A stretch of DNA of 64,000 bases, from positions 682,001 through 746,000 of the forward strand of contig NZ_CP053833.1 of NCBI RefSeq assembly GCF_013201935.1, read 5' to 3'. This DNA is from Arcobacter cloacae (GTDB taxonomy: Bacteria; Campylobacterota; Campylobacteria; Campylobacterales; Arcobacteraceae). A program made the translations under genes and the position numbers. Positions 41,903-57,096 of this stretch are shown one piece after another. Below the pieces are notes generated by a model. It ran no database searches. It had not been told where the DNA came from and was given only the letters and a program-made list of their open reading frames with translations. Positions within the stretch are counted from its first letter, which is position 1. Each line of letters opens with the position of its first letter.

Positions 41903-42179
41903 ATTTGAAAAGCTTTATATTTTCATTTTCAAACTGATATTTAAATAGAGTTAAGTTTTCACTTTCAACTCTATTTTTTATAATTTGAACATTTTGTGAA
42001 GATTTAGAAAAGTTTTGATAATTTTTATTATCAAAACTATTTTCTAAATCATTTAAAAGCATAAAATTTAAATCCTCTTTTTCATCATAATAAGTAGAAT
42101 ATTTAAATCCAGTTATTACAATTAGTAAAAAAGTTATGCTAATTAGAGTTTCAAGTAGCGTAAAACTATTTTTTTCCAA
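41892..42179 (-). CDS. Pseudopilin-like protein with prepilin-type N-terminus
   Basis: 95 residues. MEKNSFTLLETLISITFLLI is a prepilin-type signal (cleavage before Phe, Glu at +5). A short helical and polar tail follows. It overlaps the proC end by 14 bases upstream and the next pseudopilin gene by 11. With only 95 residues it lacks a full globular pilin domain and may be a minor subunit. Family cannot be assigned more closely. Confidence 0.75.
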   Translation of the reverse strand: MEKNSFTLLETLISITFLLIVITGFKYSTYYDEKEDLNFMLLNDLENSFDNKNYQNFSKSSQNVQIIKNRVESENLTLFKYQFENENIKLFKYEK

Positions 42180-42930
42180 GCTCTAGTGCTTTATTGTAAG
42201 CTTCTTCAACCGCTTTAATCATAGCATTTCTAACTCCATGCTCTTCAAGTTTTCCATATCCAGCAGCTGTTGTTCCTCCAGGACTCATAACAGAATCTTT
42301 GATAATTGCAGGATGTGAATGTTTTAAAAGTGATGCTGTTCCTGAAAATAAACCTTGAACTAATTGAGTGCTCAAATGTCTTTCAAGTCCAGCTTTTACA
42401 GCACCATCTGCTAAAGCTTCAGCAACTAAAGCTAAAAAAGCAGGTCCACTTCCAGCAACTGCTGTTGCTATATCTAGTTGATTTTCAGTATTAACCCAAA
42501 TGGCTTGACCTATGCTATTAAAAATCTCCATAGCTAGAGTTTTTGCCTCATTATCTCCTGTGATTGTAGTCATTGAGTTTTGAACTGAAGCTGCAATATT
42601 TGGCATAGTTCTTATATAATATTTTGATTTTATCTGTTTTCTTAGAGTTTCAAGTTTTGTTCCTGCTAATATTGATAATAAAACATTTGCATTTCCTGTA
42701 AGTCTTGCTGAAACGCTTTGTAGTGCATAAGGTTTTACACAAAAGATAACATTTTTACCTGTAATATCTTCATGGTCATCTAATACTTTTATTTTTATTT
42801 GTGGCATTTTTTCTTGGATATTTCTCAATTTATCTAAATCTCTTCCAATAATCTCTACTTCATGATTTTTTACAAGTCCTCTCGCTAAAGATTGAGCCAT
42901 AATTCCATTGCCTATTAATGTTAGTTTCAT
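42166..42930 (-). CDS. proC: Pyrroline-5-carboxylate reductase
   Basis: Last step of proline synthesis, NADPH-dependent, 254 residues. The N-terminal Rossmann fold is MKLTLIGNGIMAQSLARGLV; the loop NVIFCVKPYALQSV and the C-terminal signature AGSGPAFLALVAEALADGAV, with SPGGTTAAGYGKLEEHGVR, identify the family. Full length. Its 3' end overlaps the first pseudopilin-like gene by 14 bases, an arrangement that makes the pseudopilin genes part of the proC transcript. Confidence 0.96.
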   Translation of the reverse strand: MKLTLIGNGIMAQSLARGLVKNHEVEIIGRDLDKLRNIQEKMPQIKIKVLDDHEDITGKNVIFCVKPYALQSVSARLTGNANVLLSILAGTKLETLRKQIKSKYYIRTMPNIAASVQNSMTTITGDNEAKTLAMEIFNSIGQAIWVNTENQLDIATAVAGSGPAFLALVAEALADGAVKAGLERHLSTQLVQGLFSGTASLLKHSHPAIIKDSVMSPGGTTAAGYGKLEEHGVRNAMIKAVEEAYNKALELGKK

Positions 42931-43025
42931 AATTATTACCTTCTAAATTCTTTTTAAAAATTATAGCAGATAATTCCTAAGCAACTATTGGATAGAATAT
43001 CGCTTTCATGAGAAAGGATATTAAA

Positions 43026-43679
43026 ATGATAAAAAGTTTGAAGTTAAAAAATCTATTATTAATAGCTTGTGCAGCCTTTGTATTTACGGCTTGTTCTTCA
43101 AAAGAGGAGCAAGAATATAATAAACCAGCTCTTTATTGGTATAACAAAATGATGAAGCAAATATCTTCAGGTGATTTAGACCAAGCAGATGATACTTACA
43201 CATCTTTAGAGAGTGAACATAGAAATTCACCATTTATTCCAAGTGCAATGTTAATACTTGTAAATGCTCATATTGATGAAGAACAATATGCTTTAGCAAA
43301 CTTCTATTTAGATGAGTACATTAAAAGATTTGGATTAAGTAAAGATATTGATTACGCTAGATACTTAAAAATTAAAGCAAACTTTTTAGGATTTAGATAT
43401 CAATTCAGAGATCAACAATTAGTAGAAGATACAATTGCACAAATTCAAGATTTTAAAACTAAATATAAAAATTCACCTTATATGCCTTTAGTTGATACAA
43501 TAAATTCAAGATTATATATGGCTAAGGCTTCTATGGACAAAGAGATTGCTGAACTTTATATTAGAAGAGACAAAGAAAAAGCAGCAACTTTTTATGAACA
43601 AAAAGTTCAAAATTCTTGGGTAAATCCAGCAGAAATTGAACCTGTGAAAGTACCATTTTATAGATCAATATTTGAATAA
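43026..43679 (+). CDS. bamD: BamD, outer-membrane assembly lipoprotein
   Basis: Lipoprotein of the BAM complex for insertion of outer-membrane proteins. The start at ATG 43026 has GAAAGGAT upstream; the frame from 43008 adds six residues without a ribosome site. Lipobox FVFTAC gives lipid Cys23. The rest is TPR-like helices (about 35-200): YWYNKMMKQISSGDLDQADD, then HRNSPFIPSAMLILVNAHID and LANFYLDEYIKRFGLSKDID, as in BamD. 217 residues, short for BamD but normal for Campylobacterota. Followed closely by lon. Confidence 0.92.
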   Translation: MIKSLKLKNLLLIACAAFVFTACSSKEEQEYNKPALYWYNKMMKQISSGDLDQADDTYTSLESEHRNSPFIPSAMLILVNAHIDEEQYALANFYLDEYIKRFGLSKDIDYARYLKIKANFLGFRYQFRDQQLVEDTIAQIQDFKTKYKNSPYMPLVDTINSRLYMAKASMDKEIAELYIRRDKEKAATFYEQKVQNSWVNPAEIEPVKVPFYRSIFE

Positions 43680-43717
43680 TTTTAATAAATTATAATATTT
43701 TTAGGAGTTAAGTAAAA

Positions 43718-46141
43718 ATGGAATTAGAAAATTATGATGAATTTCCACAAACTATACCATTAATTATTGAAGATGATATATTTTTATACCCTTTTATGAT
43801 TGCTCCTTTATTTTTAGGTAATGAGCAAAATATTAAAGCAGTTGAATATGCAATTGAACATAACAAACTTGTAGTTGTTACAGTTTCAAAGCATGGAAAA
43901 GAAGGGAAAAGAGAAACAGATTCTTTTTATGATGTTGGAGTTGTTGGAAATATAATGAGAAAAGTATCTTTACCTGATGGAAAGATAAAAGTTCTTTTTC
44001 AAGGATTAACAAAAGGTAAAATTACAAACTTTAATCCAGAAGAACCTTTATTTGCAGGAATTGATGTTTTAAAAAGCGAAGAACCAAATGAGCAAAGTAT
44101 AAAATCAGTAATTGAAGTTTTAATTGACAATGTAAAAAAATTATCAAGATTAAATTCAAAATTTCCAGCTGATTTAGTAAAAACTATTGAAGAAAATGAT
44201 GATGCTACAAGAATTGCTGATTTAATCTCTTCAGTTTTAAAAGTAAAAAAAGATGAAGCTTATAAACTTTTTTCTCAAACAAATATAGAACAAAGATTAC
44301 TTGATATTATTGAAGTTATCAAAAAAGAGATAGAGTCATTTAAAATTCAAAAAGAGATTACACAAAAAGTAAACTCAAAAATAGAAAAAACTCATAAAGA
44401 TTATTTTTTAAAAGAACAAATCAAAGCTATTCAAAAAGAGCTTGGAACTGATAATCAAAAAGATCAAGAAATAAAATCGTATAAAAAGAGATTAAAAGCT
44501 AAAAAAGAGTTTATGCCAAAAGAGGCTTATAAAGAGACAAAAAAACAAATAGAAAAATTAGGTAGAATGAATCCTGATTCTCCTGATTCTTCACTTTTAC
44601 AAACTTATGTTGAACAAGTTTTAGATATTCCTTTTGGAGAATATGCAAATGAAAAAATCTCTGTAAAAAGTGTAGAAGAACAGTTAAATAAAGACCATTA
44701 TTCTTTAGTAAAAGCAAAAGAGAGAATTTCTGAATATTTTGCAGTTAAGCAACTACTTGAACAAAGAAATATTGAAGATTTAAAATCTAAAGGTACTGTT
44801 TTATGTTTTGTAGGACCTCCAGGTGTTGGTAAAACTTCACTTGCAAACTCTATATCAAAAGCACTACAAAGACCACTTATTAGAGTAGCTCTTGGTGGAA
44901 TGGAAGATGTAAATGAGCTTCGAGGACATAGAAGAACTTACGTTGGAGCAATGCCAGGAAGATTAATCAAAGGATTAATTGATGCCAAAAAGATGAATCC
45001 AGTTATGGTTTTAGATGAAATTGATAAATTAGGAGCAAATCACAGAGGTGATCCAACTGCTGTTATGCTTGAGATTTTAGACCCAGAACAAAACCATGAA
45101 TTTAGAGATTTGTATTTAAATTTTCCAGTTGATTTATCGCAAGTGATTTTTGTTTCAACTGCAAATGATGCTAGAAGAATTCCAGCACCTTTAAGAGATA
45201 GAATGGAATTTATAGAGATTTCATCTTATACTCCAAATGAAAAATATCATATTGCAAAAGATTATTTAATTCCTCAAGAGTTAGAAAAACATGGACTTAA
45301 AAAAACTGAAGTTAGTCTAAATAAAGCAACAATTGAGATGATAATAGGAAAATATACAAGAGAAGCAGGGGTTAGAAACCTAAGAAGAGTTTTCTCTAAA
45401 CTATTTAGAAAAGTTGTAAAACAAATTTTAAATGATGAAACAATTGAAAAAGTAACAATTGGTACAAAAGATTTAAAAACATATTTAGATAATCCAATCT
45501 TTGAAATTGATCCAGCTGATAAGAAAAATTCTGTTGGAATTGCAAATGGATTAGCTTGGACAGCAGTTGGTGGAGATGTTTTAAAAATTGAAGCAATTAA
45601 ACTAAAAGGAAAAGGAACTTTAGCAGTTACTGGAAATTTAGGTGAAGTTATGAAAGAGTCTTCAAGAATCTCTTACTCTGTTGTAAAAGTTCTAATTGAT
45701 GAAGGTTCTTTAAAAATTGATGAAGCTATTATTCCAAAAACTGTAAAAGAGGAAGAAGAAAAACAAAAAATAGAAGCAAGTGAAGTTTATAAAAGATATG
45801 ACATACACTTACATATCCCAGAGGGTGCAACTCCAAAAGATGGACCAAGTGCTGGAATTACAATGGCATTAGCAATGGCTTCTGTTTTAAGTAATAAACC
45901 AATCAAAGCAGATGTTGCAATGACTGGTGAACTTACACTTTCTGGAAAAGTTTTACCTATTGGTGGATTAAAAGAGAAGTTAATTGCTGCATATAAAGCA
46001 AAAATGAAAAAAGCTTTAATTCCTAGAAAAAATTTCGATAGAGATTTAGATGAAATACCAGAAGAAGTAAAAGCTTCAATGGAAATAAAAGCTGTTGATA
46101 CAATAGAAGATGTTTTAAAAGAGGCATTGGTTAATCAATGA
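43718..46141 (+). CDS. lon: Lon ATP-dependent protease
   Basis: 807 residues. N-terminal LAN domain (about 10-200), a coiled-coil region, then the AAA+ module: Walker A FVGPPGVGKTSLANS near residue 368, Walker B MVLDEIDKLGAN, and sensor arginines. The protease domain has the catalytic Ser in GATPKDGPSAGITMALA (near 711) and the Lys in PIGGLKEKLIAAYKAKMKKA (near 754). Complete and intact. AGGAG precedes the ATG. Its stop overlaps the next gene's start (ATGA). Confidence 0.98.
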   Translation: MELENYDEFPQTIPLIIEDDIFLYPFMIAPLFLGNEQNIKAVEYAIEHNKLVVVTVSKHGKEGKRETDSFYDVGVVGNIMRKVSLPDGKIKVLFQGLTKGKITNFNPEEPLFAGIDVLKSEEPNEQSIKSVIEVLIDNVKKLSRLNSKFPADLVKTIEENDDATRIADLISSVLKVKKDEAYKLFSQTNIEQRLLDIIEVIKKEIESFKIQKEITQKVNSKIEKTHKDYFLKEQIKAIQKELGTDNQKDQEIKSYKKRLKAKKEFMPKEAYKETKKQIEKLGRMNPDSPDSSLLQTYVEQVLDIPFGEYANEKISVKSVEEQLNKDHYSLVKAKERISEYFAVKQLLEQRNIEDLKSKGTVLCFVGPPGVGKTSLANSISKALQRPLIRVALGGMEDVNELRGHRRTYVGAMPGRLIKGLIDAKKMNPVMVLDEIDKLGANHRGDPTAVMLEILDPEQNHEFRDLYLNFPVDLSQVIFVSTANDARRIPAPLRDRMEFIEISSYTPNEKYHIAKDYLIPQELEKHGLKKTEVSLNKATIEMIIGKYTREAGVRNLRRVFSKLFRKVVKQILNDETIEKVTIGTKDLKTYLDNPIFEIDPADKKNSVGIANGLAWTAVGGDVLKIEAIKLKGKGTLAVTGNLGEVMKESSRISYSVVKVLIDEGSLKIDEAIIPKTVKEEEEKQKIEASEVYKRYDIHLHIPEGATPKDGPSAGITMALAMASVLSNKPIKADVAMTGELTLSGKVLPIGGLKEKLIAAYKAKMKKALIPRKNFDRDLDEIPEEVKASMEIKAVDTIEDVLKEALVNQ

Positions 46142-46734
46142 GCAAATCAAGACGACAGAGTCTAATAGTAAATAACTTTTTTACTTTAGCCTCTATCGTA
46201 ATCATATCTATTACTTTAGTTTTATATTCAAAATATATTTTAAATGATGGTTATGAAGAACCTACAAAAGAGATTGTAACTCCACTTTCTTGTGAAAAAG
46301 AGATTTTTTCTGTTTCAAAAGTTTATAATCAAGAACTTCTAAACGAATCTATGAAGGCTTTATATAGAGGTTTTTATAAATTAGAAGGAAGTTATAAAAA
46401 ATCCCAACAAACTCATACTATTATTGAAGATTTTATTACTTTAGAGGAATTAGATAGTTATTATATAAAAGCTATTGAAAAAACTCCTAAAGAGAATAAA
46501 AACAAATATTTAACCATAAAATATGAGATTTTAGAATATGATAAAAATGATGCAAATAAAAAACTAAGTAATTGTAAGTTTTGTTCAGGAGCTATTTTGA
46601 CCTCTTTTTTAGCAGGTGAAAAAGAGATATTTAAATTTTATATAGATTTTAGATTATATGATAAAAATGAGATAGCTTCAAAAATAGATTGCACTATAAA
46701 GGTATATGAAAACAATGTTAAAAAGATTCAGTAA
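46138..46734 (+). CDS. Membrane-anchored protein downstream of lon, unknown
   Basis: 198 residues with one N-terminal membrane segment (NNFFTLASIVIISITLVLYS) after a basic start, so the rest is probably periplasmic. The body has three Cys (PLSCEKE, and the close pair NCKFC) and is mostly polar, with IKYEILEYDKNDANKKLSNC in the middle and FYIDFRLYDKNEIASKIDCT near the end. The start overlaps the lon stop (ATGA). The end overlaps the rhomboid gene by 29 bases. No family recognised. Possible substrate or partner of rhomboid is speculation. Confidence 0.75.
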   Translation: MSKSRRQSLIVNNFFTLASIVIISITLVLYSKYILNDGYEEPTKEIVTPLSCEKEIFSVSKVYNQELLNESMKALYRGFYKLEGSYKKSQQTHTIIEDFITLEELDSYYIKAIEKTPKENKNKYLTIKYEILEYDKNDANKKLSNCKFCSGAILTSFLAGEKEIFKFYIDFRLYDKNEIASKIDCTIKVYENNVKKIQ

Positions 46735-47254
46735 AAAAGATTTTACAGCTACAAATATATTGATAATTATTACAGTTTTAATGTATATAATTCAAATAAA
46801 TATCTCTCAAGGTGGTCTATTTTTAGGCTTAAATCTCTATTTTTTAGTTTATGACTTTTGGTGGCAACCACTAAGCACAATGTTTGCCCATGGAGGAATA
46901 GCTCACCTTGGTATGAATATGTTTGTTTTATGGCAATTTGGAAATCTAATAGAGAGATTTAGAGGTGCAAAAGAGTTAGTGGCTCTTTATTTTATAACAG
47001 GAATTGCTACTTCTTTACTCTCTTTTTTATACATATTTTATTTAGACCCACAAGTAAATCTTGTAGGAGCTTCGGGTGCTATTTGTGCTTTACTTGGATA
47101 TGTGGCATATTTTGATAAAACACAAAGAAATGGGATAATAACTTGGGTTTTATTAATCTCTGTGGTACCGTTGATTATTGGACTTCCAATAGCTTGGTAT
47201 GCTCATTTTATTGGTTTGGCTGTTGGATTTTTATATGGGATTATTAGAAGATAA
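46706..47254 (+). CDS. Rhomboid-family intramembrane serine protease
   Basis: 182 residues, six membrane helices. Catalytic Ser is in VNLVGASGAICALLG; the catalytic His is in AWYAHFIGLAVGFLYG; the third signature HGGIAHLGMNMFVLWQFGN contains the conserved Asn/His helix. Either ATG 46706 or 46715 may be used: the ribosome site AAAGG is 3 bases before the first and 12 before the second, neither ideal. The last 33 residues are repeated, with changes, at 51080-51178, so this gene marks the left side of an inserted block. Confidence 0.9.
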   Translation: MKTMLKRFSKKDFTATNILIIITVLMYIIQINISQGGLFLGLNLYFLVYDFWWQPLSTMFAHGGIAHLGMNMFVLWQFGNLIERFRGAKELVALYFITGIATSLLSFLYIFYLDPQVNLVGASGAICALLGYVAYFDKTQRNGIITWVLLISVVPLIIGLPIAWYAHFIGLAVGFLYGIIRR

Positions 47255-47385
47255 ATCACACAAAAAGTTCTCTTAATTTTGTGGAAGTTAAATTTTTTAT
47301 ACTATTTATAATAAAAAATAAGTTTTTTTGCTTAACAATTAATTATTTGAACTGTATAAAAATCTTTTATTTAAAATTATATTTG

Positions 47386-47391
47386 TATAAT
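47386..47391 (+). promoter_or_regulatory. -10 box just before the IS-split gene
   Basis: TATAAT ends six bases before the ATG at 47397, so transcription would begin at or near the start codon and the mRNA would be leaderless. Otherwise the gap 47255-47396 shows no strong structure. Confidence 0.35.
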
Positions 47392-47396
47392 AACAA

Positions 47397-49182
47397 ATGA
47401 TAATCTTTTCAAATATTTTTAAAACATTAAAATCATTTTACTACAATTTGACACAAATGATATATATAATTTTAGGCTTTAGTCAATTAGGTTTTTTATG
47501 TGTTTATTTAGAACAAAATAATTTATTCTTAATTTTAATACATTTAACTCTTATAGAAACACTTTTTATCTCATATAAGACTATTCATTCAAAAAAGTTT
47601 TTATCTATCTATGGTTTTTATTTATTACTTAAATATATCTTTTCATCTTTCATATTTTTGTATAATTCAAATTATATAGACTACTATTTTTTAGTTACCT
47701 TCCAGCTTTTATTTTTCTTTTTTAATATTGATACAGTAAATATTTATAGAAATAAACAAATTAAAGTTTTATCTTTTCTATTTTTAGTAACTTTATCAAC
47801 AACTATATCTATGTTAAGTAGTAATAATTTTTCATTTTTATTTGTAATTTATTTAATATCTGTGTATTATATTCTTAAAAGTAAAGTGCTTCCAGAAGAA
47901 AACAGATTTTGCCACAATAATCAATTTATTCCTAATATGATACTAAGAAAAATAAAACAGTTACCCATATCTTTTGCAAGTCTTACAATATTAACCTTTA
48001 TTCCTTTTATATATTATTTACAATTAGAATTGACTTTAAAAATCACATTATCTTGTATATTATTTCTTACAATCTTTTATGAATACAGACAATTTTATGG
48101 AGGTTGGTCTTTAAGTTTTGATATTTCAAAAATATTAAAATACTATAAATTGATTATGGTGTTTTCTATATTTTATATTTTATTATTTTGGTTAACTAAT
48201 ATTCAAATAGAGGTAGAAATCTTTAAAGATTATTCAACAAATATATTTAATAATATTTCTAATATTGCAATTCTAAATATCGCAAGTCTTTTTGTGATTC
48301 TTCAATTAAATTATAGTAAGTATGGTTCTTCTTATTTATTATATAAAATATTAAAGTCACCAATTTTATTAATAATCACATTTTTACCAAGTTTAATTTA
48401 TATTTGTAGTTTTTATTTTCTTAAATTGGAACAAGAGCAATATAACATTCTACCTTCATTATTGATTTTATCTTATTTATCAACCTTAAGTTTGTTTTTT
48501 TATACCTATGTTTTTATGGAGACTCAAAATTTGATGAAAAAACTTTTTGAAGATGTTAAGTATGAAGACTTTAATACTTATAAGAATAATATTATTCAGA
48601 CAAAAGAAAGAAATATTGACAGTATTTTAACTATTATTAATAAGATTATTAATAATAATGATACTCCAACTAGTCATTCCTTGTTTTTTTATTTATTTTG
48701 TTGGGTAAATATTAATATTTTACATATAAAGGATCAAGATAGATTTTATCAAACAAAAGAGAATAATAGATTTTATGATTTTTTTATGCTAATCATTCAG
48801 AATATAGTTACTTCAAATAATTTAATACAAAAAAACTTTCTTACAGCAATTAAAGAAATGATAATGTACAAGATAAATTCAGATAACTACATGAATTATG
48901 GTTTAATTTATAGAGTATTATTTTCATATTTAAAGTTGTCATTAGAAAATAAAAATGAAGAAATCTCTAAATTTATTTATGATGTGATTTATTTAAAAAC
49001 ATCAACAATTCTTTTAAATTTAAAAAGATTTGAATTATCAGATTATGAAATGCTTAATTATGATAATGATTATACAACAATGAGTGATTTTGAAAGTGTT
49101 TTTATTGAAAGTTTGAATAGCATTCAAAAAATAGCGATTAAAAATGAACAGAAAGAATTTTTAAGTCATTGTAGATTTATTA
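47397..49182 (+). pseudogene. 5' part of a large membrane-protein gene split by an IS element
   Basis: The open frame from 47397 runs to 49223, but its last 14 codons come from the insertion sequence that begins at 49183. The native part is about 595 codons. It is very A+T-rich, with roughly ten hydrophobic helices in the first 380 residues (LGFLCVYLEQNN region, FLFLVTLSTTISML, IFYILLFWLTNIQ, LLIITFLPSLIYICSF) and a polar cytoplasmic-like second part. No ribosome site precedes the ATG. I do not recognise the family. Joined to 50292-50959 it makes one frame; see the findings. Confidence 0.8.
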
Positions 49183-49206
49183 CTCTCCTAATAAATAATC
49201 TGAATT
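49183..49206. repeat. Left terminal inverted repeat of the IS
   Basis: CTCTCC followed by TAATAAATAATCTGAATT. It matches the reverse complement of the right end except for one or two positions near the outer tip. It carries the last codons of the disrupted host frame. Confidence 0.85.
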
Positions 49207-50250
49207 TTAAGCTGCATACTTAACTTTCGGATGTTTAAAAAAATTAGCTACTTTGTGTGGATTATTTTGTAAAGATAACATATACTTTTCTGTATTTCTT
49301 TTTAAATGTTCTTTATCTTTTGGAACATCATTTCTATTTGCACTTTGTTTATAATCTTGATTCAAATATTCATCAGGATTATAGTCTGGTGAATAAGCAG
49401 GCAGATAAAATAATTTAATTTTATCTTTATGTTCTTCTTCCCATGCTTTTACTAGTTTTGCATGATGTACTCTTAGGTTATCAACTATTAAATATACTTT
49501 TTTACCATTATTAGAATCAATAATTTTTTGACAAAAATCTATGAATCTATCAATATTGATAGATTCATCATACAAGCTAAACATTGATTTACCAGTATTT
49601 GTAATAGCACTAATCATATTTATTTTAAACTTTTTAGCAGTATGCTCAAGAATTGGTTTATTATGAGTTCCTATTGGTGCATATCCTGTTAGATTATTTG
49701 GCATTGATTGACAAGCTGTTTCATCAGCCCACCAAATATCAGCATTATCTTTTTTAGCTTCTTTTTTAATTTTTGGATACTCTTCATTTAACCATTTTTG
49801 AGTATTTACATCTTTTCTCTCATAAGCCCTTTTGATTGGTTTTTTACTTGTAAATTGCCATTTTGAAAGATAATATCCTACTGTTGAGATTGGCATATCA
49901 ATATCAAATTCATATTTTATTAATGTTTGTACAGCCTCTCTTGTCCAAAGTGCAAATTTGAATTTTAACTGTTGTGGATTTGTATCTATTAGCATTTTGA
50001 TGATTTCTGATTCTTGTTGATCTGATAATGTTTTACCTACATTTTTTGGTCGTCCTGCATTTTTAACTTTAAAAATTTTTGTACCATCTTTTTTATATTG
50101 TGTATAGTATGTTGAAATTGTTTGAGCAGATATACCAACTATTTGGGCAACTTCTTTATTTGATATACCTTTCTCTCTTAGTTTCATAGCTATCTTTCTT
50201 TTTTCAGACAACTCTCTTGGTGATAATTTTCTTGCATCTATTTTTTCCAT
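49207..50250 (-). CDS. IS630-family transposase
   Basis: 347 residues, DDE-type. The N-terminal part holds two HTH-like regions (RELSEKRKIAMKLREKGISN with VAQIVGISAQTISTYY). The DDE catalytic domain has its first Asp in ADIWWADETACQSM, second in VYLIVDNLRVHHAKLV and the Glu in LPAYSPDYNPDEYLNQDY. The spacing between the last two is about 34-36 residues, as usual for IS630. No frameshift or stop. The gene fills the element and starts near the right end. Confidence 0.93.
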   Translation of the reverse strand: MEKIDARKLSPRELSEKRKIAMKLREKGISNKEVAQIVGISAQTISTYYTQYKKDGTKIFKVKNAGRPKNVGKTLSDQQESEIIKMLIDTNPQQLKFKFALWTREAVQTLIKYEFDIDMPISTVGYYLSKWQFTSKKPIKRAYERKDVNTQKWLNEEYPKIKKEAKKDNADIWWADETACQSMPNNLTGYAPIGTHNKPILEHTAKKFKINMISAITNTGKSMFSLYDESINIDRFIDFCQKIIDSNNGKKVYLIVDNLRVHHAKLVKAWEEEHKDKIKLFYLPAYSPDYNPDEYLNQDYKQSANRNDVPKDKEHLKRNTEKYMLSLQNNPHKVANFFKHPKVKYAA

Positions 50251-50264
50251 TCAACATTATACTA

Positions 50265-50289
50265 TAATTCAGATTATTTATTAGTGGAG
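50265..50289. repeat. Right terminal inverted repeat of the IS
   Basis: AATTCAGATTATTTAT followed by the outer tip TTAGTGGAG region, the near reverse complement of the left end. The next two bases are the duplicated TA. Confidence 0.82.
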
Positions 50290-50291
50290 TA

Positions 50292-50959
50292 ATAATCATA
50301 GTTTTTTCGTAGAGTTTTCAACTGAAACTGGTGATTATACTTATGAAAAGTGGGATGGTAAAGTTATAGAAGTTTATACACAGTTAAGAAGTTTAAGAAC
50401 TGATATTGATAAATATGTATTAAAGAATGCACAGTTTTCTAGTATTTATATGAAAGATTATAATATCTTTTTTACAGGTGAATCTACTTTACATTTTAAA
50501 TATAATAATTTGATACAAAAGTATGTACTAAATGATTTAGTTCATTTATTAATATACTCTATTGAAAATGATTTAGTAAAATCAGATTCTGATTTTAGTA
50601 TATTTTGGTCAACAATAATTGATATAACTTTCAGAAATAAAGATGAGGATACAATTATGAATTTAATATCAGTTTTTATTTTTTTATTCGATAAGTTAGC
50701 AAAAAAATATATTGATGATAAGGAAAAGAACTCTGTTTTATATTGGGTGTTTCAAAGAGTTCTTCAACTTAAAACATATAAAGAATTAAGTAAAGAAACA
50801 AAAAAACTTATAAACCTCAGAATTGATACTTTATTACAAAAATATCCAAAACTAAATGATTTTGTAGATATTGATATAAATAATGGTTTTGTTAGAATCA
50901 AAGATATTAATTTAATTAAGGACTATGATATTAAAATAGTAAATGATTATCAGATATAA
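50292..50959 (+). pseudogene. 3' part of the IS-split membrane-protein gene
   Basis: The frame is open from 50285 and reads NNHSFFVEFSTETGDYTYEK after the IS, continuing through the ATG at 50450 to the stop at 50957-50959. About 222 codons of native sequence. It is polar with helical stretches (LIYSIENDLVKSDSDFSIFW, IDDKEKNSVLYWVFQRVLQL) and no signal or membrane segment, consistent with a cytoplasmic C-terminal domain. It shares the same composition as the 5' part. It could be translated from the internal ATG 50450, but no ribosome site precedes it. Confidence 0.8.
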
Positions 50960-51070
50960 ATGTTAATAATAGATATAAAAGTAATTTTCTAGTTATATAA
51001 TAAATAAAAATCAAGAGTTTAAGTTGTATAAAAATATAAATATTTAAAATAAGTATTTGTTTGATAGTGG

Positions 51071-51178
51071 TATTTAGTGATTTCTGTTGCACCACTACTT
51101 ATAGGTCTTCCAATTGCTTGGTATGCTCACTTTATAGGTTTTGGAATAGGGTTTTTATATGCAATTATAAGAAGATAG
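51071..51178 (+). pseudogene. Diverged remnant of a rhomboid gene 3' end
   Basis: The sequence ISVAPLLIGLPIAWYAHFIG, then FGIGFLYAIIRR and TAG at 51176-51178, closely repeats the end of the intact rhomboid gene (ISVVPLIIGLPIAWYAHFIG, LAVGFLYGIIRR). The nucleotide match is clearly lower than the protein match. No frame continues upstream: an in-frame TAG lies at 51065. It is a leftover C-terminus with the catalytic His but no Ser, so it is not functional. It marks the right side of the block 47255-51070. Confidence 0.85.
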
Positions 51179-51340
51179 TTAGTTATTTACAAAATAAGTA
51201 ACTACGCTCATAACAGATAAAACAATTGCCATAGCTATAAAAATATCTTTAAGTGTAACAGTTGGATTTAAAATGCCACAATATGGGCATTGTCTTTTTT
51301 TAGGTTCGATTTCATTTTTACAGTTTTTACAAGTAGCGAT
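51179..51340 (-). CDS. Small zinc-ribbon membrane protein with apparent AUC start
   Basis: 53 residues, reading on the minus strand from 51340: IATCKNCKNEIEPKKRQCPYCG, cited in part, then ILNPTVTLKDIFIAMAIVLS and VMSVVTYFVNN. It has a four-Cys zinc ribbon (CKNC and CPYC) followed by one membrane helix. There is no ATG, GTG or TTG at the right place: the codon in the start position is ATC, five to six bases after AAAGGAT. The next ATG is far inside. A real start mutation (ATG to ATC), use of the rare AUC start, or a sequence error are all possible. It ends one base after the rhomboid remnant. Confidence 0.6.
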   Translation of the reverse strand: MATCKNCKNEIEPKKRQCPYCGILNPTVTLKDIFIAMAIVLSVMSVVTYFVNN

Positions 51341-51408
51341 GGAATATCCTTTGAAATTTTTGAAATAGTAGCATATTTATAATTTAAATAAATAATAAAA
51401 GGAAATAG

Positions 51409-51603
51409 ATGCAAAAGATACATATTCAATGTCCTTACTGTTTACAAGCAATCTCTATTTTATTGGATTGTGGAGTGTTTGAACATACAACAGTTATTGA
51501 AGATTGTGAGGTTTGTTGTAGACCTATAGAAGTTTCATACATAGTTGAAAATGGTGAAATAAAAACATATTCATACAATAGCATAGAAGGAAATGAGTTT
51601 TAA
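51409..51603 (+). CDS. CPXCG-motif Cys-rich small protein
   Basis: 64 residues. The family is recognised by CPYCLQAISILLDCGVFEHT with a second Cys pair (EDCEVCCRPIEVSY). It is a small zinc-binding protein of unknown role. ATAAAAGGAAAT precedes the ATG. Twelve bases separate it from the phosphatase gene, with which it forms an operon. Confidence 0.85.
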   Translation: MQKIHIQCPYCLQAISILLDCGVFEHTTVIEDCEVCCRPIEVSYIVENGEIKTYSYNSIEGNEF

Positions 51604-51615
51604 AATGGAGTTAAA

Positions 51616-52077
51616 ATGGAAGTAAAATCGATTTTATTTGTGTGTTTAGGAAATATCTGTAGGTCGCCAATTGCTCAAGGGGTTGCACAAAATTATATAA
51701 AAGAGAAAAATTTAGATTTACAAATAGATAGTGCAGGAACAGGAAGTTGGCATATAGGTGAAGCTCCTTGCGAAAACTCTATAAAAGTAGCACTTTCAAA
51801 TGGTGTTGATATTTCAAAACAAAAAGCAAGACAAGTAAAAAAAGAGGATTTCAAAAAATTTGATTTGATAGTTGGACTTGATAATAGCAATATACAAAAT
51901 CTAAAAAATCTAGGATGTAAAAATTCATTAAAATTAGGAGATTTTGGTTTTGATGGAAAGTGTGTTCCTGATCCATACTTTTTTGAAGGTTTTGAAGGCT
52001 TTGATAAAGTTTATGAAATGATAGATATTTGTGTTAGAAATTTGATTGATGAGTCAATTAATAATCATATATCTTAA
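51616..52077 (+). CDS. Low-molecular-weight protein tyrosine phosphatase
   Basis: 153 residues. The catalytic P-loop is near the start: ILFVCLGNICRSPIAQGVAQ (CX5R, with Cys at about residue 10). The general acid Asp lies in KCVPDPYFFEGFEGFDKVYE. Also typical is IDSAGTGSWHIGEAPCENSI. All catalytic residues are present. Could act on tyrosine-phosphorylated proteins or on arsenate, but no arsenic genes are near. Follows the CPXCG gene by 12 bases. Confidence 0.93.
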   Translation: MEVKSILFVCLGNICRSPIAQGVAQNYIKEKNLDLQIDSAGTGSWHIGEAPCENSIKVALSNGVDISKQKARQVKKEDFKKFDLIVGLDNSNIQNLKNLGCKNSLKLGDFGFDGKCVPDPYFFEGFEGFDKVYEMIDICVRNLIDESINNHIS

Positions 52078-52116
52078 TATTAGCTACAATTGTGAAAAAA
52101 AGTTATAGGGAAAAAT

Positions 52117-53406
52117 ATGAATAAAGCAAATACTTTTTATGAAATACAAGATGCAGTAGCATTTAATAATCCAATTGATGAAAAAAATGAGTTTTATACA
52201 GATTTCTCAGGATTTAGAAAAGGCTTTAATGAAAAAAAGATTTTTAAATATCTAAATATCAACCCTACAACAAAAGAGTGTAATAAAATATCTCAGCCTT
52301 TAAAACTTTTTTTAAGTGGACATAGAGGTACTGGAAAAACTACAGAATTATTAAAATTAAGAAATGAGATAGATGAAACAACTTGTTTTTTTACAGTATT
52401 TTGTGATTTAAGTGATGAAGAATTAGATGTAAATAATATTGATTTTATTGATATTGTTATTTTGATTTTGGAAAAATTAATAGAAACTTTAAAAGAAAGA
52501 AAAATTGATATTCCAAAGGCAAATATAAAATCTTTTTATGAATGGTATGACCAAAGAATTACTGAAATAAATAGTCAAACTGATGAATCAGCTTCTATTG
52601 AAATTGAGGGAAAAGTTGGAATAGATTTATTTTCTTTATTTTCATTAGTGAGTAAAACAAAAGGAAAGTTATCTGGTTCAAATAGTACAAAAGAGAGTAT
52701 TAGAACGGTATTTAAAAATAAATTTTCAGATTTTAGTTTAAAATTTAATGAGTTTATTTTAGATATTAAAGATTATTTACTAAGAAATGAAATTTCAAAA
52801 GATTTACTTTTCATAGTAGATGGTTTTGAAAAAATTGGAAGTTTTGAAGATAGAAAAAAAATACTTATTGATAATTCAAACAAATTTGTTGAGATTAAAG
52901 CAAATATGATTATTACCTTACCCATAGAACTTTTTTCAGAGGTTGGAAGATTAAAAGAATTTGCAAAACATATATCTTTTCCTCTTATATCTTTAGATGA
53001 TAAATCAAAAGAAAGATTTAAAGAGTTTATATATAAAAGAATAAATAAAGATTTATTTGAAAATGAAGATACAGTTGAAAGAATTATTTCTTATGGAGCA
53101 GGTTCTCCAAGAGAAACATTAAAAATAATATCAGATGCATATATTGAGGCAGAAAATGAAAAAATTGATTTAAAAAGTATTGAAGATGTTCAAAAAGCAA
53201 ATAGTAAAATTATGATGAAATATCTTAATGAAAAAGAGATTTTACTATTAAAAGAGATTAAAAGAAATGAACCAATATCATTTAGTCCTGAACTTGCATC
53301 ACTTTTAGTTAAAAAAATAGTTTTAGAATATGATGATGGAATAGAAAGAAAAATAAACCCAATTTTATTGGATAATGAAGATTTTATTAATCTAATAAAG
53401 GATTAA
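52117..53406 (+). CDS. P-loop ATPase (AAA/STAND-like), partner of the TPR protein
   Basis: 429 residues, soluble. Walker A is FLSGHRGTGKTTELLKL (about 67-83); Walker B is LLFIVDGFEKIG (about 230-241); a sensor-2-like stretch YGAGSPRETLKIISDAY lies at about 328-344. The C-terminal 90 residues look like a winged helix (LLLKEIKRNEPISFSPELAS). The middle part 130-205 is helical and may be an insert. This is the core of a STAND or Orc/Cdc6-like ATPase without its own sensor repeats. The next gene follows after two bases and supplies TPR repeats. Probably a two-gene unit. GTTATAGGG is a weak ribosome site. Confidence 0.8.
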   Translation: MNKANTFYEIQDAVAFNNPIDEKNEFYTDFSGFRKGFNEKKIFKYLNINPTTKECNKISQPLKLFLSGHRGTGKTTELLKLRNEIDETTCFFTVFCDLSDEELDVNNIDFIDIVILILEKLIETLKERKIDIPKANIKSFYEWYDQRITEINSQTDESASIEIEGKVGIDLFSLFSLVSKTKGKLSGSNSTKESIRTVFKNKFSDFSLKFNEFILDIKDYLLRNEISKDLLFIVDGFEKIGSFEDRKKILIDNSNKFVEIKANMIITLPIELFSEVGRLKEFAKHISFPLISLDDKSKERFKEFIYKRINKDLFENEDTVERIISYGAGSPRETLKIISDAYIEAENEKIDLKSIEDVQKANSKIMMKYLNEKEILLLKEIKRNEPISFSPELASLLVKKIVLEYDDGIERKINPILLDNEDFINLIKD

Positions 53407-53408
53407 TT

Positions 53409-54821
53409 TTGACTGCGGAGTTAAAATTTGAGGAACTACAAAAGAAATTAAAAAAAGTTTTAGATACGAATCGATTTAGATTTATTTTTATCTTTTATCC
53501 ACACATAAACTTAAGAGAAAATATAAAAAATTACATTTGTGAAAACTTTATTCATTCAAATAGTCTAACTCTTGATTTGAAAAATAATACTTATCAAGAT
53601 ATTGCACCAATACTTTATGAAAATGATAAAAGTTTTATTTTTATAGATGATTTTTTTGATGTGTTATATAATGCTGATTTGTATAATGGCTTTAATCAAC
53701 GAAGAGATAAAATAGCTTCTAAAAACATAAATCTTATTTGTTTTGTAAACTCAAATTTTAAAGAGAAATTTTTTCATACATCAATAGAATATATTCCAGA
53801 TTTATTTGAGTTTAAAAATGCTATTTTTGAGATAGAAATACCAAATAATGATGAAAATAAATTAAAATTAAATGAAATTTCAAGTAGTTCATATAGTTCT
53901 TTAGGTGGATTAACTACTGAAAGTAAAAAAGATGAACTAGATAGGTTGATTTTAAAACTTGAAAATACTAGTTCTGATGATGAAAAAATAAACTTATATG
54001 ATCAAATTTCAACGATTTTTAAAGATATTGGAAAATATGAAAAAGCATTAGAATACTTAGAAAAAACTCTAAAAATTGAGGAAGATGATTTATCTCTTGC
54101 TGTTACATATAATAATATTTCTATTATTTATCAAAATATAAAAAATTTCCAAAAAGCGTTAGAATATCAAAAGAAATCGATTGAAATAAAAGAAAAATTT
54201 TTAGATAAAAATGATTCAGAATTAGCTTCTAGTTATAATAATCTAGCAACAATATACATGGATATATATAATTATGAAAAAGCGTTAGAGTATTCAAAAA
54301 TAGCTATAAATATATTAGAAAATATTCAAAATAGTAATTACGATTTGGCTATGGCTTATAATAATATTTCTATACTTTACAGAAGAATTAATAGTTTTCA
54401 AAAATCATTAGAATATGCAAAAAAAGCTATTCAAATACAAGAAGAAATATGGGAAGATAAACATCCTGATTTAGCTACAAGTTATAATAATATTTCTGTG
54501 CTGTATCAAGATATTGGTGAAATTCCAAAAGCATTAGAATATGTAAAAAAAGCTATTAAAATACAAGAAGAAATGTTTGGGGACAAACATCCTGATTTAG
54601 CAACAAGTTATAGTAATATTTCAATAATTTATATTAATTTAAAAGAATGCATAAATGCCAAAGAGTATATGCAAAAAGCAATAGATATTTGGCAACAATA
54701 TGAGTACCATAATAAAGAGTTATCTAATTCAAGAAAAATTATAAAAGATATTGAGCATAATATAAAACAAGAAAAGAAACTTCCGTACAACAAAAAAGGA
54801 AGATTCTGTAAAGATGTTTAA
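53409..54821 (+). CDS. TPR-repeat protein with a degenerate ATPase-like N-terminus
   Basis: 470 residues. TTG start with AAAGGAT upstream. The first 150 residues show an ATPase-like layout without a P-loop: RFIFIFYPHINLRENIKNYI at the usual Walker A place and SFIFIDDFFDVL in Walker B style. From about 190 to 440 there are six or so tetratricopeptide repeats of the kinesin-light-chain kind, for example YEKALEYLEKTLKIEEDDLS and LATSYNNISVLYQDIGEIPK. The last two are near-copies (HPDLATSYNNIS and HPDLATSYSNIS). A basic tail follows. It appears to be the sensor half of the pair with the preceding ATPase. Function unknown; see findings. Confidence 0.8.
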   Translation: MTAELKFEELQKKLKKVLDTNRFRFIFIFYPHINLRENIKNYICENFIHSNSLTLDLKNNTYQDIAPILYENDKSFIFIDDFFDVLYNADLYNGFNQRRDKIASKNINLICFVNSNFKEKFFHTSIEYIPDLFEFKNAIFEIEIPNNDENKLKLNEISSSSYSSLGGLTTESKKDELDRLILKLENTSSDDEKINLYDQISTIFKDIGKYEKALEYLEKTLKIEEDDLSLAVTYNNISIIYQNIKNFQKALEYQKKSIEIKEKFLDKNDSELASSYNNLATIYMDIYNYEKALEYSKIAINILENIQNSNYDLAMAYNNISILYRRINSFQKSLEYAKKAIQIQEEIWEDKHPDLATSYNNISVLYQDIGEIPKALEYVKKAIKIQEEMFGDKHPDLATSYSNISIIYINLKECINAKEYMQKAIDIWQQYEYHNKELSNSRKIIKDIEHNIKQEKKLPYNKKGRFCKDV

Positions 54822-54844
54822 ATAGGATAATATTTATCCTATTT
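54820..54844 (+). terminator. Terminator of the ATPase/TPR pair
   Basis: AAATAGGATAA (54820-54830) and TTATCCTATTT (54834-54844), loop TAT, followed by T-rich sequence. It begins at the TPR stop codon, so the pair ends here and selO is separate. Confidence 0.75.
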
Positions 54845-54907
54845 TATATTTTCTTTTGATATAGTTCAATCAGATTTGAATATATTATTAAAAAAAGAGA
54901 ATAAATT

Positions 54908-56362
54908 ATGAAATTAAATGAACTAAAACTAGAAGTTGATTACTTTGAATTTGATGAAAACTTATATCAAAAAGTAAAACCAACACCACTAAAAAATCCA
55001 AAACTTGTATCTTTTAATCCCCTTGCTTGTGATTTAATCAATTTAGAGTATAAAGAGTGTGAAACACAAGATTTCTTAGAGTTTATGAATGGAACAAAAG
55101 TATTAAATGGAAGTATTCCATATAGTATGGTTTATGCAGGTCATCAGTTTGGTTATTTTGTACCACAACTAGGAGATGGTAGAGCCATAAATCTTGGTAG
55201 TGTAAATGGTTGGCATTTACAAACAAAAGGTTCAGGACTTACACGTTATTCAAGAAGAGGAGATGGAAGAGCGGTTTTACGTTCATCAATTAGAGAGTAT
55301 CTAATAAGTGAACATATGCATGCTTTAAATATTCCAACAACAAGAGCTTTAGCTATCATTGATTCACAAACTTTTGCCCATAGAGATTGGGAAGAAGAAT
55401 CATGTGCTATTGTTCTTAGAATGTCTCCTTCTTGGATAAGAATAGGAACTTTTGAGTTTTTTGCAAGAACAAAAAATGCAAAAGAGAATCTTAGTTTATT
55501 AGCTAATTATGTGATAAATCAATCATATCCTCATCTAAAAGATGAAAAAAATAAATATGAAAAGATGTTCTATTCTTTGGTAGATAAAAGTGCTGAACTT
55601 TTGGCTTTATGGCAGGTTTATGGTTTTCAACATGGGGTTATGAATACAGATAATTTTTCTGTTGCAGCTCTTAGTATTGATTATGGTCCATTTGCTTTTA
55701 TGGATTATTTTGAAAAAAATTCTATTTGCAATCATACAGATGAAGAGGGAAGATACTCATATAATAATCAACCATACATAGCAAGATGGAATCTGTTTGT
55801 TTTAGCAAATGCTCTAGCTGGAATTTGTGATGAAAACAGACTAAAAGAGTATATGAGAACTTTTTTACCACAACATGAAAAAGTCTATTTAGAGCTTATG
55901 AATAAAAGATTAGGTTTAGATGCTTCAAAAAGTGGAAATGGAAATCTTCATTTGATTTTGGAACTTTTAGGAAGTTTGGAAAGTTCAAAGATGGATTATA
56001 ATGTTTTCTTTTATAGACTTACAAATCTAAAATCTTTTGATGATTTGAGTTCTATTTTGGATATTGCAGTTTTTCAAGAGCCACTTAAAAAATGGTTTGA
56101 GAGTTATGAAAAAGTATGTAACGAACAAAATACAACTTTTGAAGGAAGATTTGAACTCATGAAAAAAGTAAATCCAAAATATATTTTAAAAAACTATATC
56201 ATTCAAGAAGCTATAGAAAAAGCCCATGAAGGTGACTATACTTTGGTAAATGACTTACTAAAAATCGCTCAAAATCCTTTTGATGAACATCCAAAATTTG
56301 AAAGATATGCCCAACCAACACCTATGAAATATGCAAATATAAAACTTAGTTGTTCTTCATAA
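54908..56362 (+). CDS. selO: SelO/YdiU pseudokinase, protein AMPylator
   Basis: 484 residues, the bacterial SelO family, which transfers AMP to proteins. Signatures are GHQFGYFVPQLGDGRAINLG (nucleotide-binding Gly-rich part), LQTKGSGLTRYSRRGDGRAV, then VLRSSIREYLISEHMHALNI and GFQHGVMNTDNFSVAALSID, which provides the metal-binding Asn and Asp. In the E. coli protein a Cys and selenocysteine-equivalent end occurs; here the chain ends IKLSCSS, so a Cys sits three residues from the end, as in many bacterial forms. Its own transcript, ended by a hairpin at 56361. Confidence 0.95.
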   Translation: MKLNELKLEVDYFEFDENLYQKVKPTPLKNPKLVSFNPLACDLINLEYKECETQDFLEFMNGTKVLNGSIPYSMVYAGHQFGYFVPQLGDGRAINLGSVNGWHLQTKGSGLTRYSRRGDGRAVLRSSIREYLISEHMHALNIPTTRALAIIDSQTFAHRDWEEESCAIVLRMSPSWIRIGTFEFFARTKNAKENLSLLANYVINQSYPHLKDEKNKYEKMFYSLVDKSAELLALWQVYGFQHGVMNTDNFSVAALSIDYGPFAFMDYFEKNSICNHTDEEGRYSYNNQPYIARWNLFVLANALAGICDENRLKEYMRTFLPQHEKVYLELMNKRLGLDASKSGNGNLHLILELLGSLESSKMDYNVFFYRLTNLKSFDDLSSILDIAVFQEPLKKWFESYEKVCNEQNTTFEGRFELMKKVNPKYILKNYIIQEAIEKAHEGDYTLVNDLLKIAQNPFDEHPKFERYAQPTPMKYANIKLSCSS

Positions 56363-56383
56363 ATAAGAGTTTTACTCTTATTT
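56361..56383 (+). terminator. Terminator of selO
   Basis: AAATAAGAGT (56361-56370) and ACTCTTATTT (56374-56383), loop TTT, with T after. Its last base is the first base of the operator at 56383. Confidence 0.75.
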
Positions 56384-56397
56384 TGACCAATGGTCAA
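56383..56397. promoter_or_regulatory. TetR operator 1 of the efflux operon
   Basis: TTGACCAATGGTCAA, a perfect palindrome of 15 bases. It shares the TTGACC half-site with operator 2, 57 bases downstream. The spacer holds the likely promoter (TATACT near 56427-56432). Confidence 0.7.
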
Positions 56398-56439
56398 TAA
56401 TTTAAAAGAGATTAAGGTTTAAATTGTATACTTCCATTC

Positions 56440-56458
56440 TTGACCGACCGTCAGTCAA
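56440..56458. promoter_or_regulatory. TetR operator 2 of the efflux operon
   Basis: TTGACCGAC-C-GTCAGTCAA, one mismatch between arms. It is of the size and style of classic AcrR/TetR operators and lies 30 bases before the regulator ATG, downstream of the -10 box, so binding would block its own operon. Confidence 0.75.
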
Positions 56459-56487
56459 TAAATAATCTATATTTTTTAGAGGTAAAA

Positions 56488-57096
56488 ATGGCACCAAAAG
56501 TTGTAGATAAAGAGCAAAAAAGAAGAGAAATCGCTATTTCGTGTAAAGATTTGATTTTTGAAGTTGGAATAAAAAAATTAACAGTTGCACAAGCTGCAAA
56601 AACTGCACAAATAGGGAAAGGTACTATTTATGAATATTTTGAAAATAAATATGACATTGTTTTTGAAATAATAAATATTAGTATTGAAGAGTATCATCAA
56701 GAATTTTTAAAAGTAATTAAAAATGTAAAAAGTACAAAAGAGAAAGTTTACTATTTTTTCAAATTTGTTTTAGATGATAGTGATGAAAATATGAAACAAT
56801 TTAATGCTTATAAAGATTATTTATCAATTGTTTTAAGTGATGATAATCAACTAATGAAAAAATACAACGATACTTGTCATATATTTTTTAAAGAACAGTT
56901 AGAAAATGTTATTAATGAGGGTATAAAAAGTAATGAGTTAATACCACAAGCTAAAAATTTTATAGATGGATTATTGGTTTTTGAAAAAGGTTTGGTTTTA
57001 CAAAAAATGACACAAGAGAATTTCGATGTGTCAGATGTTTGTAAAAGATTTATAGATAACTTATTTGATTTAATAGAGGTAAGAGATGATAAATAA
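56488..57096 (+). CDS. TetR-family repressor of the efflux operon
   Basis: About 202 residues from ATG 56488, which has AGAGG upstream. The longer frame from a TTG at 56440 runs through the operator and is not real. HTH: VGIKKLTVAQAAKTAQIGKG then TIYEYFENKYDIVFEIINIS, the TetR mark. A helical ligand domain follows. Its end overlaps the next gene by 11 bases, so it is the first gene of an operon TetR-DUF2798-adaptor-RND-OMF-SMR and probably regulates all of it. Confidence 0.92.
   Translation: MAPKVVDKEQKRREIAISCKDLIFEVGIKKLTVAQAAKTAQIGKGTIYEYFENKYDIVFEIINISIEEYHQEFLKVIKNVKSTKEKVYYFFKFVLDDSDENMKQFNAYKDYLSIVLSDDNQLMKKYNDTCHIFFKEQLENVINEGIKSNELIPQAKNFIDGLLVFEKGLVLQKMTQENFDVSDVCKRFIDNLFDLIEVRDDK

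What the first reader, a model, noticed from the sequence alone, without database searches (positions are those of the whole stretch)
47397..50959. IS630 element splits an 817-codon membrane-protein gene, and excision would restore the frame
Seen: element 49183-50289 with TA on each side. Joining 49182 to 50292 (one TA kept) makes the codon AAT, and the downstream frame continues in phase to the stop at 50957. Total is about 595 + 1 + 221 codons. The 608-codon frame that ends at 49223 is therefore not a real gene end: its last 14 codons come from the IS. This is direct evidence for a recent insertion, because neither half has accumulated stops.
Basis: seen in the sequence. Interest (0 to 1): 0.72.

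Follow-up and report, generated by a model that had tools for sequence, protein, structure and literature searches.

The report
Jumping gene inside an imported orphan
A small jumping gene (IS630 type) has split an otherwise unknown membrane-protein gene, and that gene itself sits on a small foreign insert that entered at the end of a rhomboid protease gene and replaced its tail; the jumping gene is ordinary, the entry site is the more useful find.

Summary
Comparison with 15 other complete copies moves its ends 3 bp outwards: the IS is 49180-50292 (1113 bp), with TA at 49178-49179 and 50293-50294. The uninterrupted frame is therefore 815 codons, not 817; it is still in phase. "Excision would restore the frame" is arithmetic only.

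The wider finding: the split gene lies on a 3.92 kb, A+T-rich insertion (about 47153-51072). It swapped the last 33 codons of the neighbouring rhomboid gene for its own version and pushed the native tail downstream (51073-51178). None of the 28 other congeneric genomes with that rhomboid gene has a second tail. In another Arcobacteraceae genus an 18.4 kb island with a tyrosine integrase and a relaxase ends in a displaced rhomboid tail whose start lies within about 5 bases of the window's; a third genome has the same integrase lineage right behind rhomboid. So rhomboid's 3' end looks like an integration site, and the window holds an integrase-less insertion there, hit by an IS. Ordinary IS; modestly interesting site.

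The parts
49180..50292 (-). IS630-family insertion sequence, 1113 bp, one full copy in this genome
   Evidence: Ends fixed by 15 other complete copies sharing TA-TTACT...GGAGTAA-TA with varied flanks; one full copy in own genome; length and ends
49178..49179 (.). TA target duplication, left copy
50293..50294 (.). TA target duplication, right copy
49180..49213 (.). left terminal inverted repeat (28 of 34 positions match the right one)
   Evidence: also (I1)
50259..50292 (.). right terminal inverted repeat
   Evidence: also (I1)
49207..50250 (-). IS630 transposase, 347 aa, intact frame
47397..49179 (+). 5' part of split orphan gene (594 whole codons + 1 base); 10 to 12 hydrophobic spans by a simple hydropathy scan, then a soluble part
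   Evidence: no family match in Pfam, NCBIfam, PADLOC, PHROGs
50295..50959 (+). 3' part of split orphan gene (2 bases of the split codon, 220 codons, stop); no hydrophobic span found
46706..47254 (+). rhomboid protease gene; first 447 nt native, last 102 nt from the insertion
   Evidence: PF01694 4.7e-26; best split at nt 447 against closest relative, 12 mismatches in 447 then 20 in 102
47153..51072 (+). whole insertion, about 3.92 kb (edges uncertain by a few bases)
47153..47254 (+). replacement rhomboid 3' end carried by the insertion
51073..51178 (+). displaced native rhomboid 3' end, continuous with native downstream DNA
   Evidence: 11 mismatches in 106 nt against closest relative, alignment continuing to 51616
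51616..52077 (+). low-molecular-weight phosphatase gene, close rhomboid neighbour in 17 of 28 congeneric loci
   Evidence: PF01451 1.2e-33; synteny

Best explanation
Two nested insertions. First, a foreign segment of about 3.92 kb carrying one 815-codon membrane-protein gene entered at the 3' end of the rhomboid gene. It supplied a replacement for the last 33 rhomboid codons and stop, so the protease stayed whole, and displaced the native tail downstream. This is the signature of integrase-driven integration into a gene end; the integrase is no longer present, or acted from elsewhere. Second, an IS630-family element jumped into a TA in codons 594-595 of the cargo gene, leaving a 608-codon truncated frame that keeps the predicted membrane spans and loses the last 220 codons. 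Shown: the IS, its ends, the single frame, the tail swap, the empty site in relatives, and an integrase-bearing island at nearly the same point in another genus. Inferred: that an integrase made the window's insertion, that the IS came after it, and that the cargo gene was functional before the IS.
For: IS. Tail swap: against the closest relative (G020) the rhomboid gene has 12 mismatches in its first 447 nt and 20 in its last 102 (Fisher 1.5e-8; 0 of 1000 permutations reach that split), while the downstream copy has 11 in 106 and runs on into native DNA. Empty site: none of the 28 other congeneric genomes with a rhomboid hit (of 30 others searched) has a second tail; 17 of 28 loci have the phosphatase within about 460 bp of rhomboid, against 4361 bp in the window. 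Foreign composition: gene parts 19.2% and 21.4% G+C, spacers 14-15%, window 26.8%. Similar event elsewhere: G107 has a tyrosine integrase 121 bp after rhomboid, an HsdM gene, a Rep3 protein and a MobA-type relaxase, then a displaced tail; against sister G104 its rhomboid 5' part is 91.3%, new tail 74.5%, displaced tail 88.6%, following DNA 90.2% identical. Homology at the right junction begins 2 bases before the conserved Ile codon of ISV in G107 and 7 bases before it in the window. G098 has an integrase fragment 66% identical over 99 residues directly after rhomboid.
Against: The window's insertion has no integrase, and the best match to the G107 integrase among 12 of 13 recombinase loci of its genome is weak (22% identity, 6e-9). 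Its ends do not clearly resemble those of the G107 and G098 elements (right end against G107: 17 of 500 shuffles as good; the other three comparisons 186 to 305 of 500), although those two resemble each other. The left breakpoint in G107 is not sharp: over the first 480 nt the best split of mismatches against G104 falls at nt 279 with weak support. In the window, mismatches are dense over the first ~212 nt after the right junction (20 of 26; 1 of 1000 permutations), so the history is not one clean event. Homologous exchange with a donor already carrying the insertion would look the same. No uninterrupted homologue of the cargo gene is known to prove it was ever one protein.
Confidence: 0.7

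Rival explanations
1. The 3.9 kb segment came by DNA uptake and homologous recombination from a donor that already had this arrangement; no integrase acted in this lineage.
For: No integrase in the insert; a mismatch-rich first ~212 nt on the displaced side, with mostly synonymous changes in the tail (9 of 11), suggests exchange of flanking DNA.
Against: Both junctions fall at the same part of the rhomboid gene, and in another genus an island with its own integrase has its right junction within about 5 bases of it. This rival still needs the insertion to have formed in the donor.
Confidence: 0.22
2. The two frames are separate genes that only happen to line up across the IS, so nothing was split.
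For: No uninterrupted homologue is known; the 3' frame has an internal ATG at 50450.
Against: The 3' frame is open right up to the IS, upstream of that ATG; 0 of 5000 shuffles were open; clean TA duplication.
Confidence: 0.05
3. The displaced rhomboid tail is a plain tandem duplication made inside this genome rather than a trace of incoming DNA.
For: Two copies in the same orientation.
Against: The copies are only 77% alike, the outer one is the native one, and the gene between them was not found in relatives and is poor in G+C.
Confidence: 0.03

Closest known systems
IS630 family insertion sequences (IS630-Tc1-mariner superfamily)
   Same: One transposase frame with DDE_3 domain, inverted ends, TA duplication
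   Different: Nothing of note; relatives of its transposase were seen at 79% in a MAG labelled Aliarcobacter butzleri and, as fragments of 78-89%, in Arcobacter vandammei
Integrase-borne genomic islands that regenerate their target gene and leave a displaced fragment (principle in Islander, PMC4383910, abstract and passages)
   Same: Regenerated gene plus displaced 3' fragment in the same orientation marking the ends; empty site in relatives
   Different: The target is a protein gene (rhomboid), not a tRNA; the window copy has no integrase
Arcobacter butzleri RM4018 islands ABGI1-3 (PMC2147049, passages)
   Same: Small Arcobacter islands (4.9-26.9 kb) with terminal integrases and short direct repeats; ABGI2 carries HsdS- and HsdM-like proteins and is not in a tRNA, somewhat like the G107 island here
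   Different: The passages seen do not say which gene ABGI2 or ABGI3 targets; no sequence comparison was made

Membership tests
IS630 family | Transposase of the IS630 type | tested here: met
   NF033545 214.9 bits against cut-off 100
IS630 family | TA target duplication with inverted ends | tested here: met
   TA at both edges in the window and in 15 of 15 other complete copies; 28 of 34 end positions match
IS630 family | Active transposition | not testable with these tools
   Frame and ends are intact; activity needs an assay
Integrase-borne island in a target gene | Target gene regenerated, displaced fragment at the far end, same orientation | tested here: met
Integrase-borne island in a target gene | Empty site in relatives | tested here: met
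   No second tail in 28 of 28 other congeneric genomes with a hit, 30 searched; rhomboid and phosphatase close together in 17 of 28 loci
Integrase-borne island in a target gene | Integrase gene inside the island | tested here: not met
   None in 47153-51072; present in G107 and, as a fragment at a contig end, in G098. The window insert is therefore not filed as an autonomous island
Integrative mobilizable element | Relaxase or mobilization genes | tested here: not met
   None among the frames of the window insert; MobA-type relaxase and NikA/MobC-type protein in G107

The most novel reading that the evidence does not exclude
The 3' end of the rhomboid gene is an attachment site for mobilizable islands in Arcobacteraceae that I found in no listed paper, and the window holds a one-gene, integrase-less passenger that uses the same site and swaps the tail of a protease gene, moved in trans by integrases of other islands.
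Probability: 0.25. Interest if true: 0.45.

Novelty: new member of a known kind. Interest (0 to 1): 0.3.

Why it matters
The IS insertion alone is everyday genome wear. The surrounding structure points to an integration site in a conserved protein gene of Arcobacteraceae, with an integrase (G107) that can be tested directly, and shows how an insertion can rewrite the C-terminus of a rhomboid protease (8 of the 20 tail differences from the closest relative lie in codons that change the protein). It also shows an orphan membrane-protein gene, without a convincing relative in the collections searched, delivered and then broken.

Tried and rejected
Homologues of the split gene. At E 1e-3 none in 59 other relatives (5' part) or 103 other family genomes (3' part); none in one scan of genome contigs (5' part), two of viral contigs, plasmids or phages. 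The class searches (396 other genomes each) gave matches up to E 0.01 in 3 other genomes for the 5' part (all three hold stops) and 14 for the 3' part. Two of the 14 are just under 1e-3 and hold 6 and 3 stops. I opened four others: by recall one is TolC-like, one NIF3-like, and two share a MutS2-like N-terminus that aligns to overlapping parts of the query. I treat all as chance, but a weak shared motif with the last two is not excluded; ten of the 14 were not opened. These searches reach close to moderate relatives only.

Structure: single-sequence AlphaFold2 models of both halves were poor (mean pLDDT 42.9 and 50.6), so no fold search was run. Search of solved-structure sequences gave nothing below E 0.4.

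Shared end sequences between the window insert and the G107 and G098 islands: tested against shuffles and not convincing. Sharp left breakpoint in G107: tested and not found.

tRNA as target: no tRNA in 42000-57000.

Integrases of the own genome: 13 PF00589 hits, 12 fetched; one of the 12 loci aligned to the G107 integrase (6e-9), the others not at 1e-3. No resident helper is identified.

Other G107-type integrases: six of the eight family genomes with a match at 1e-20 show no rhomboid within the fetched flanks, some of which are cut short by contig ends.

IS copies left out of the end comparison: 9 of the 25 transposase matches are partial and were not printed. Of six named loci printed, three fit the ends at both sides (L064, L065, L067), two differ by a base or two (L066, L072), and one shows a single end (L069).

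Papers: searches were seen as listings only (8 to 20 papers each). Passages were read in PMC2147049, PMC4383910 and PMC7827188. I opened the rhomboid passage of four papers listed (PMC5133609, PMC12824646, PMC4226512, PMC8891609); none speaks of rhomboid as an integration target. Published target lists of island-mapping programs were not read, so 'unreported' is not claimed beyond these searches.

Full report
Observation. The window is G000:C1:682001-746000 of a 2,810,923 bp genome in two contigs. Its genus also holds G013, three of whose contig lengths (92,055, 149,801, 21,830) equal those of Arcobacter vandammei R-73987 contigs, so the organism is taken to be an Arcobacteraceae close to that species (inference).

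IS ends. Two TA pairs fit the sequence, because the inverted repeat extends over TTATTA on both sides (I1). Of 25 transposase matches in five family genomes, the window included, I printed the flanks of the 16 complete ones, the window plus 15; the 9 partial ones were left out. All 15 share TATTACT at one end and GGAGTAATA at the other. In seven alike copies of genome G010 the base before that is T, C or A and the base after is T, C, G or A. The element therefore ends in TTACT...AGTAA with TA outside: 49180-50292, 1113 bp. Of six named loci printed earlier, three fit both ends, two differ by a base or two, and one shows one end only. The frame joined at one TA is 2448 bases, 815 codons and a stop. 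Any clean insertion with its target duplication restores the frame on paper; that is not evidence that excision does so in life. Sleeping Beauty leaves a footprint on excision (PMC7827188, passages).

The split gene. The first 594 codons hold 10 to 12 hydrophobic spans up to residue 369, depending on the threshold, then a soluble part; the last 220 codons have none. No family matched in Pfam, NCBIfam, PADLOC or PHROGs beyond chance scores, and no convincing homologue of either half was found (chance-level matches, four opened). The evidence for a split gene is internal: the TA duplication, and one frame free of stops in A+T-rich DNA, where 0 of 5000 base shuffles of the 3' part stay open.

The larger insertion. 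The last 110 nt of the rhomboid gene recur at 51068-51177 at 77% identity. In the closest relative, G020, 437 bp separate the rhomboid stop from the phosphatase start; in the window the gap is 4361 bp. Against G020, the window rhomboid gene has 12 mismatches in 447 nt and then 20 in 102; the best split is at window 47153 and 0 of 1000 permutations reach it. The downstream copy starts at 51073, at the same part of the gene, has 11 mismatches in 106 nt, and runs on into native sequence. So the tail now on the rhomboid gene came with the insert and the native tail was displaced. Of 31 genomes of the genus, 29 had a rhomboid hit, and only the window's had a second tail. The 5' part of the orphan gene was found in none of the other 30 genomes of the genus. 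The insert is poor in G+C (19-21% in the gene, 14-15% in the spacers, against 26.8% for the window); the IS is at 27.0%. The spacers match nothing in the congeneric loci apart from one hit of 58 nt at 74%.

The same site elsewhere. Of 397 genomes of the class, 141 had a hit to the rhomboid tail and two had a second, partial one: the window's genome and G107, of another genus. In G107 the order is rhomboid, tyrosine integrase (PF00589, 3.9e-8), three frames that I read as a type I restriction set (HsdM shown by Pfam, HsdR and HsdS by eye), Rep3 protein, relaxase and NikA/MobC-type protein, then a rhomboid tail. Sister genomes G104, G105 and G106 have rhomboid running straight into the DNA that follows the displaced tail in G107. 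Against G104 the rhomboid 5' part is 91.3% identical, the new tail 74.5%, the displaced tail 88.6%, the following 234 nt 90.2%. Homology at the right junction starts 2 bases before the conserved Ile codon of ISV in G107 and 7 bases before it in the window. The left breakpoint of G107 is not sharp: the best split of mismatches against G104 in the first 480 nt is at nt 279, with weak support. The island is about 18.4 kb. In G098 a fragment 66% identical to the same integrase lies directly after rhomboid at a contig end; no displaced tail was found in that fragmented assembly. The spacers behind rhomboid in G107 and G098 resemble each other (0 of 500 shuffles), but the window's do not clearly resemble either.

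Mechanism. Tyrosine integrases that target tRNA gene ends carry a copy of that end, so the gene is regenerated and the old end is displaced (PMC4383910, abstract and passages). G107 shows the like for the rhomboid gene, with its integrase in place. The window shows the same kind of scar within about 5 bases of the same point, without an integrase. The best reading is a decayed or non-autonomous insertion at that site, or DNA received by recombination from a lineage that had one. Mismatches are dense in the first ~212 nt beyond the right junction (20 of 26), which a single clean event does not explain; exchange with related DNA or an earlier insertion could. The IS came in later, or arrived with the insert; a single full copy in the genome does not tell which.

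Verdict. The more informative object is the insertion around it. Since the integrase is missing, the window's segment is not filed as an autonomous island. It is built like one and most likely derives from one.

Noticed in passing
52117-54821: An AAA-type ATPase gene followed by a TPR gene lies between the phosphatase and selO; weak NCBIfam match of the first to DS41_1_antiphage (1.3e-8, 34 bits against a cut-off of 370). Relatives of both (84-85%) sit right after the phosphatase in G006, the only one of 28 congeneric loci with a match, and not in G020: possibly a mobile defence pair.
   Followed up: partly
L134:3396-18001 and L135:1-4466 (G107): 18.4 kb island with integrase, HsdM-type methylase, relaxase and Rep3 protein in the rhomboid 3' end, with a Y-family polymerase gene just beyond it.
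   Followed up: partly
window 51073-51284: Mismatches against G020 are dense over the first ~212 nt after the right junction, including DNA beyond the rhomboid stop.
   Followed up: partly
L043 8549-9823 (G030): selO matches in four pieces, suggesting a decaying copy or sequence errors in that genome.
   Followed up: no
L082, L085, L087, L090, L093, L095, L097 (G010): Seven alike copies of a related IS630 element in one genome: probably a recent burst.
   Followed up: no
G000:C1 and C2: Thirteen tyrosine-recombinase hits in the window's genome; some may be xer-type, others mark integrative elements.
   Followed up: partly
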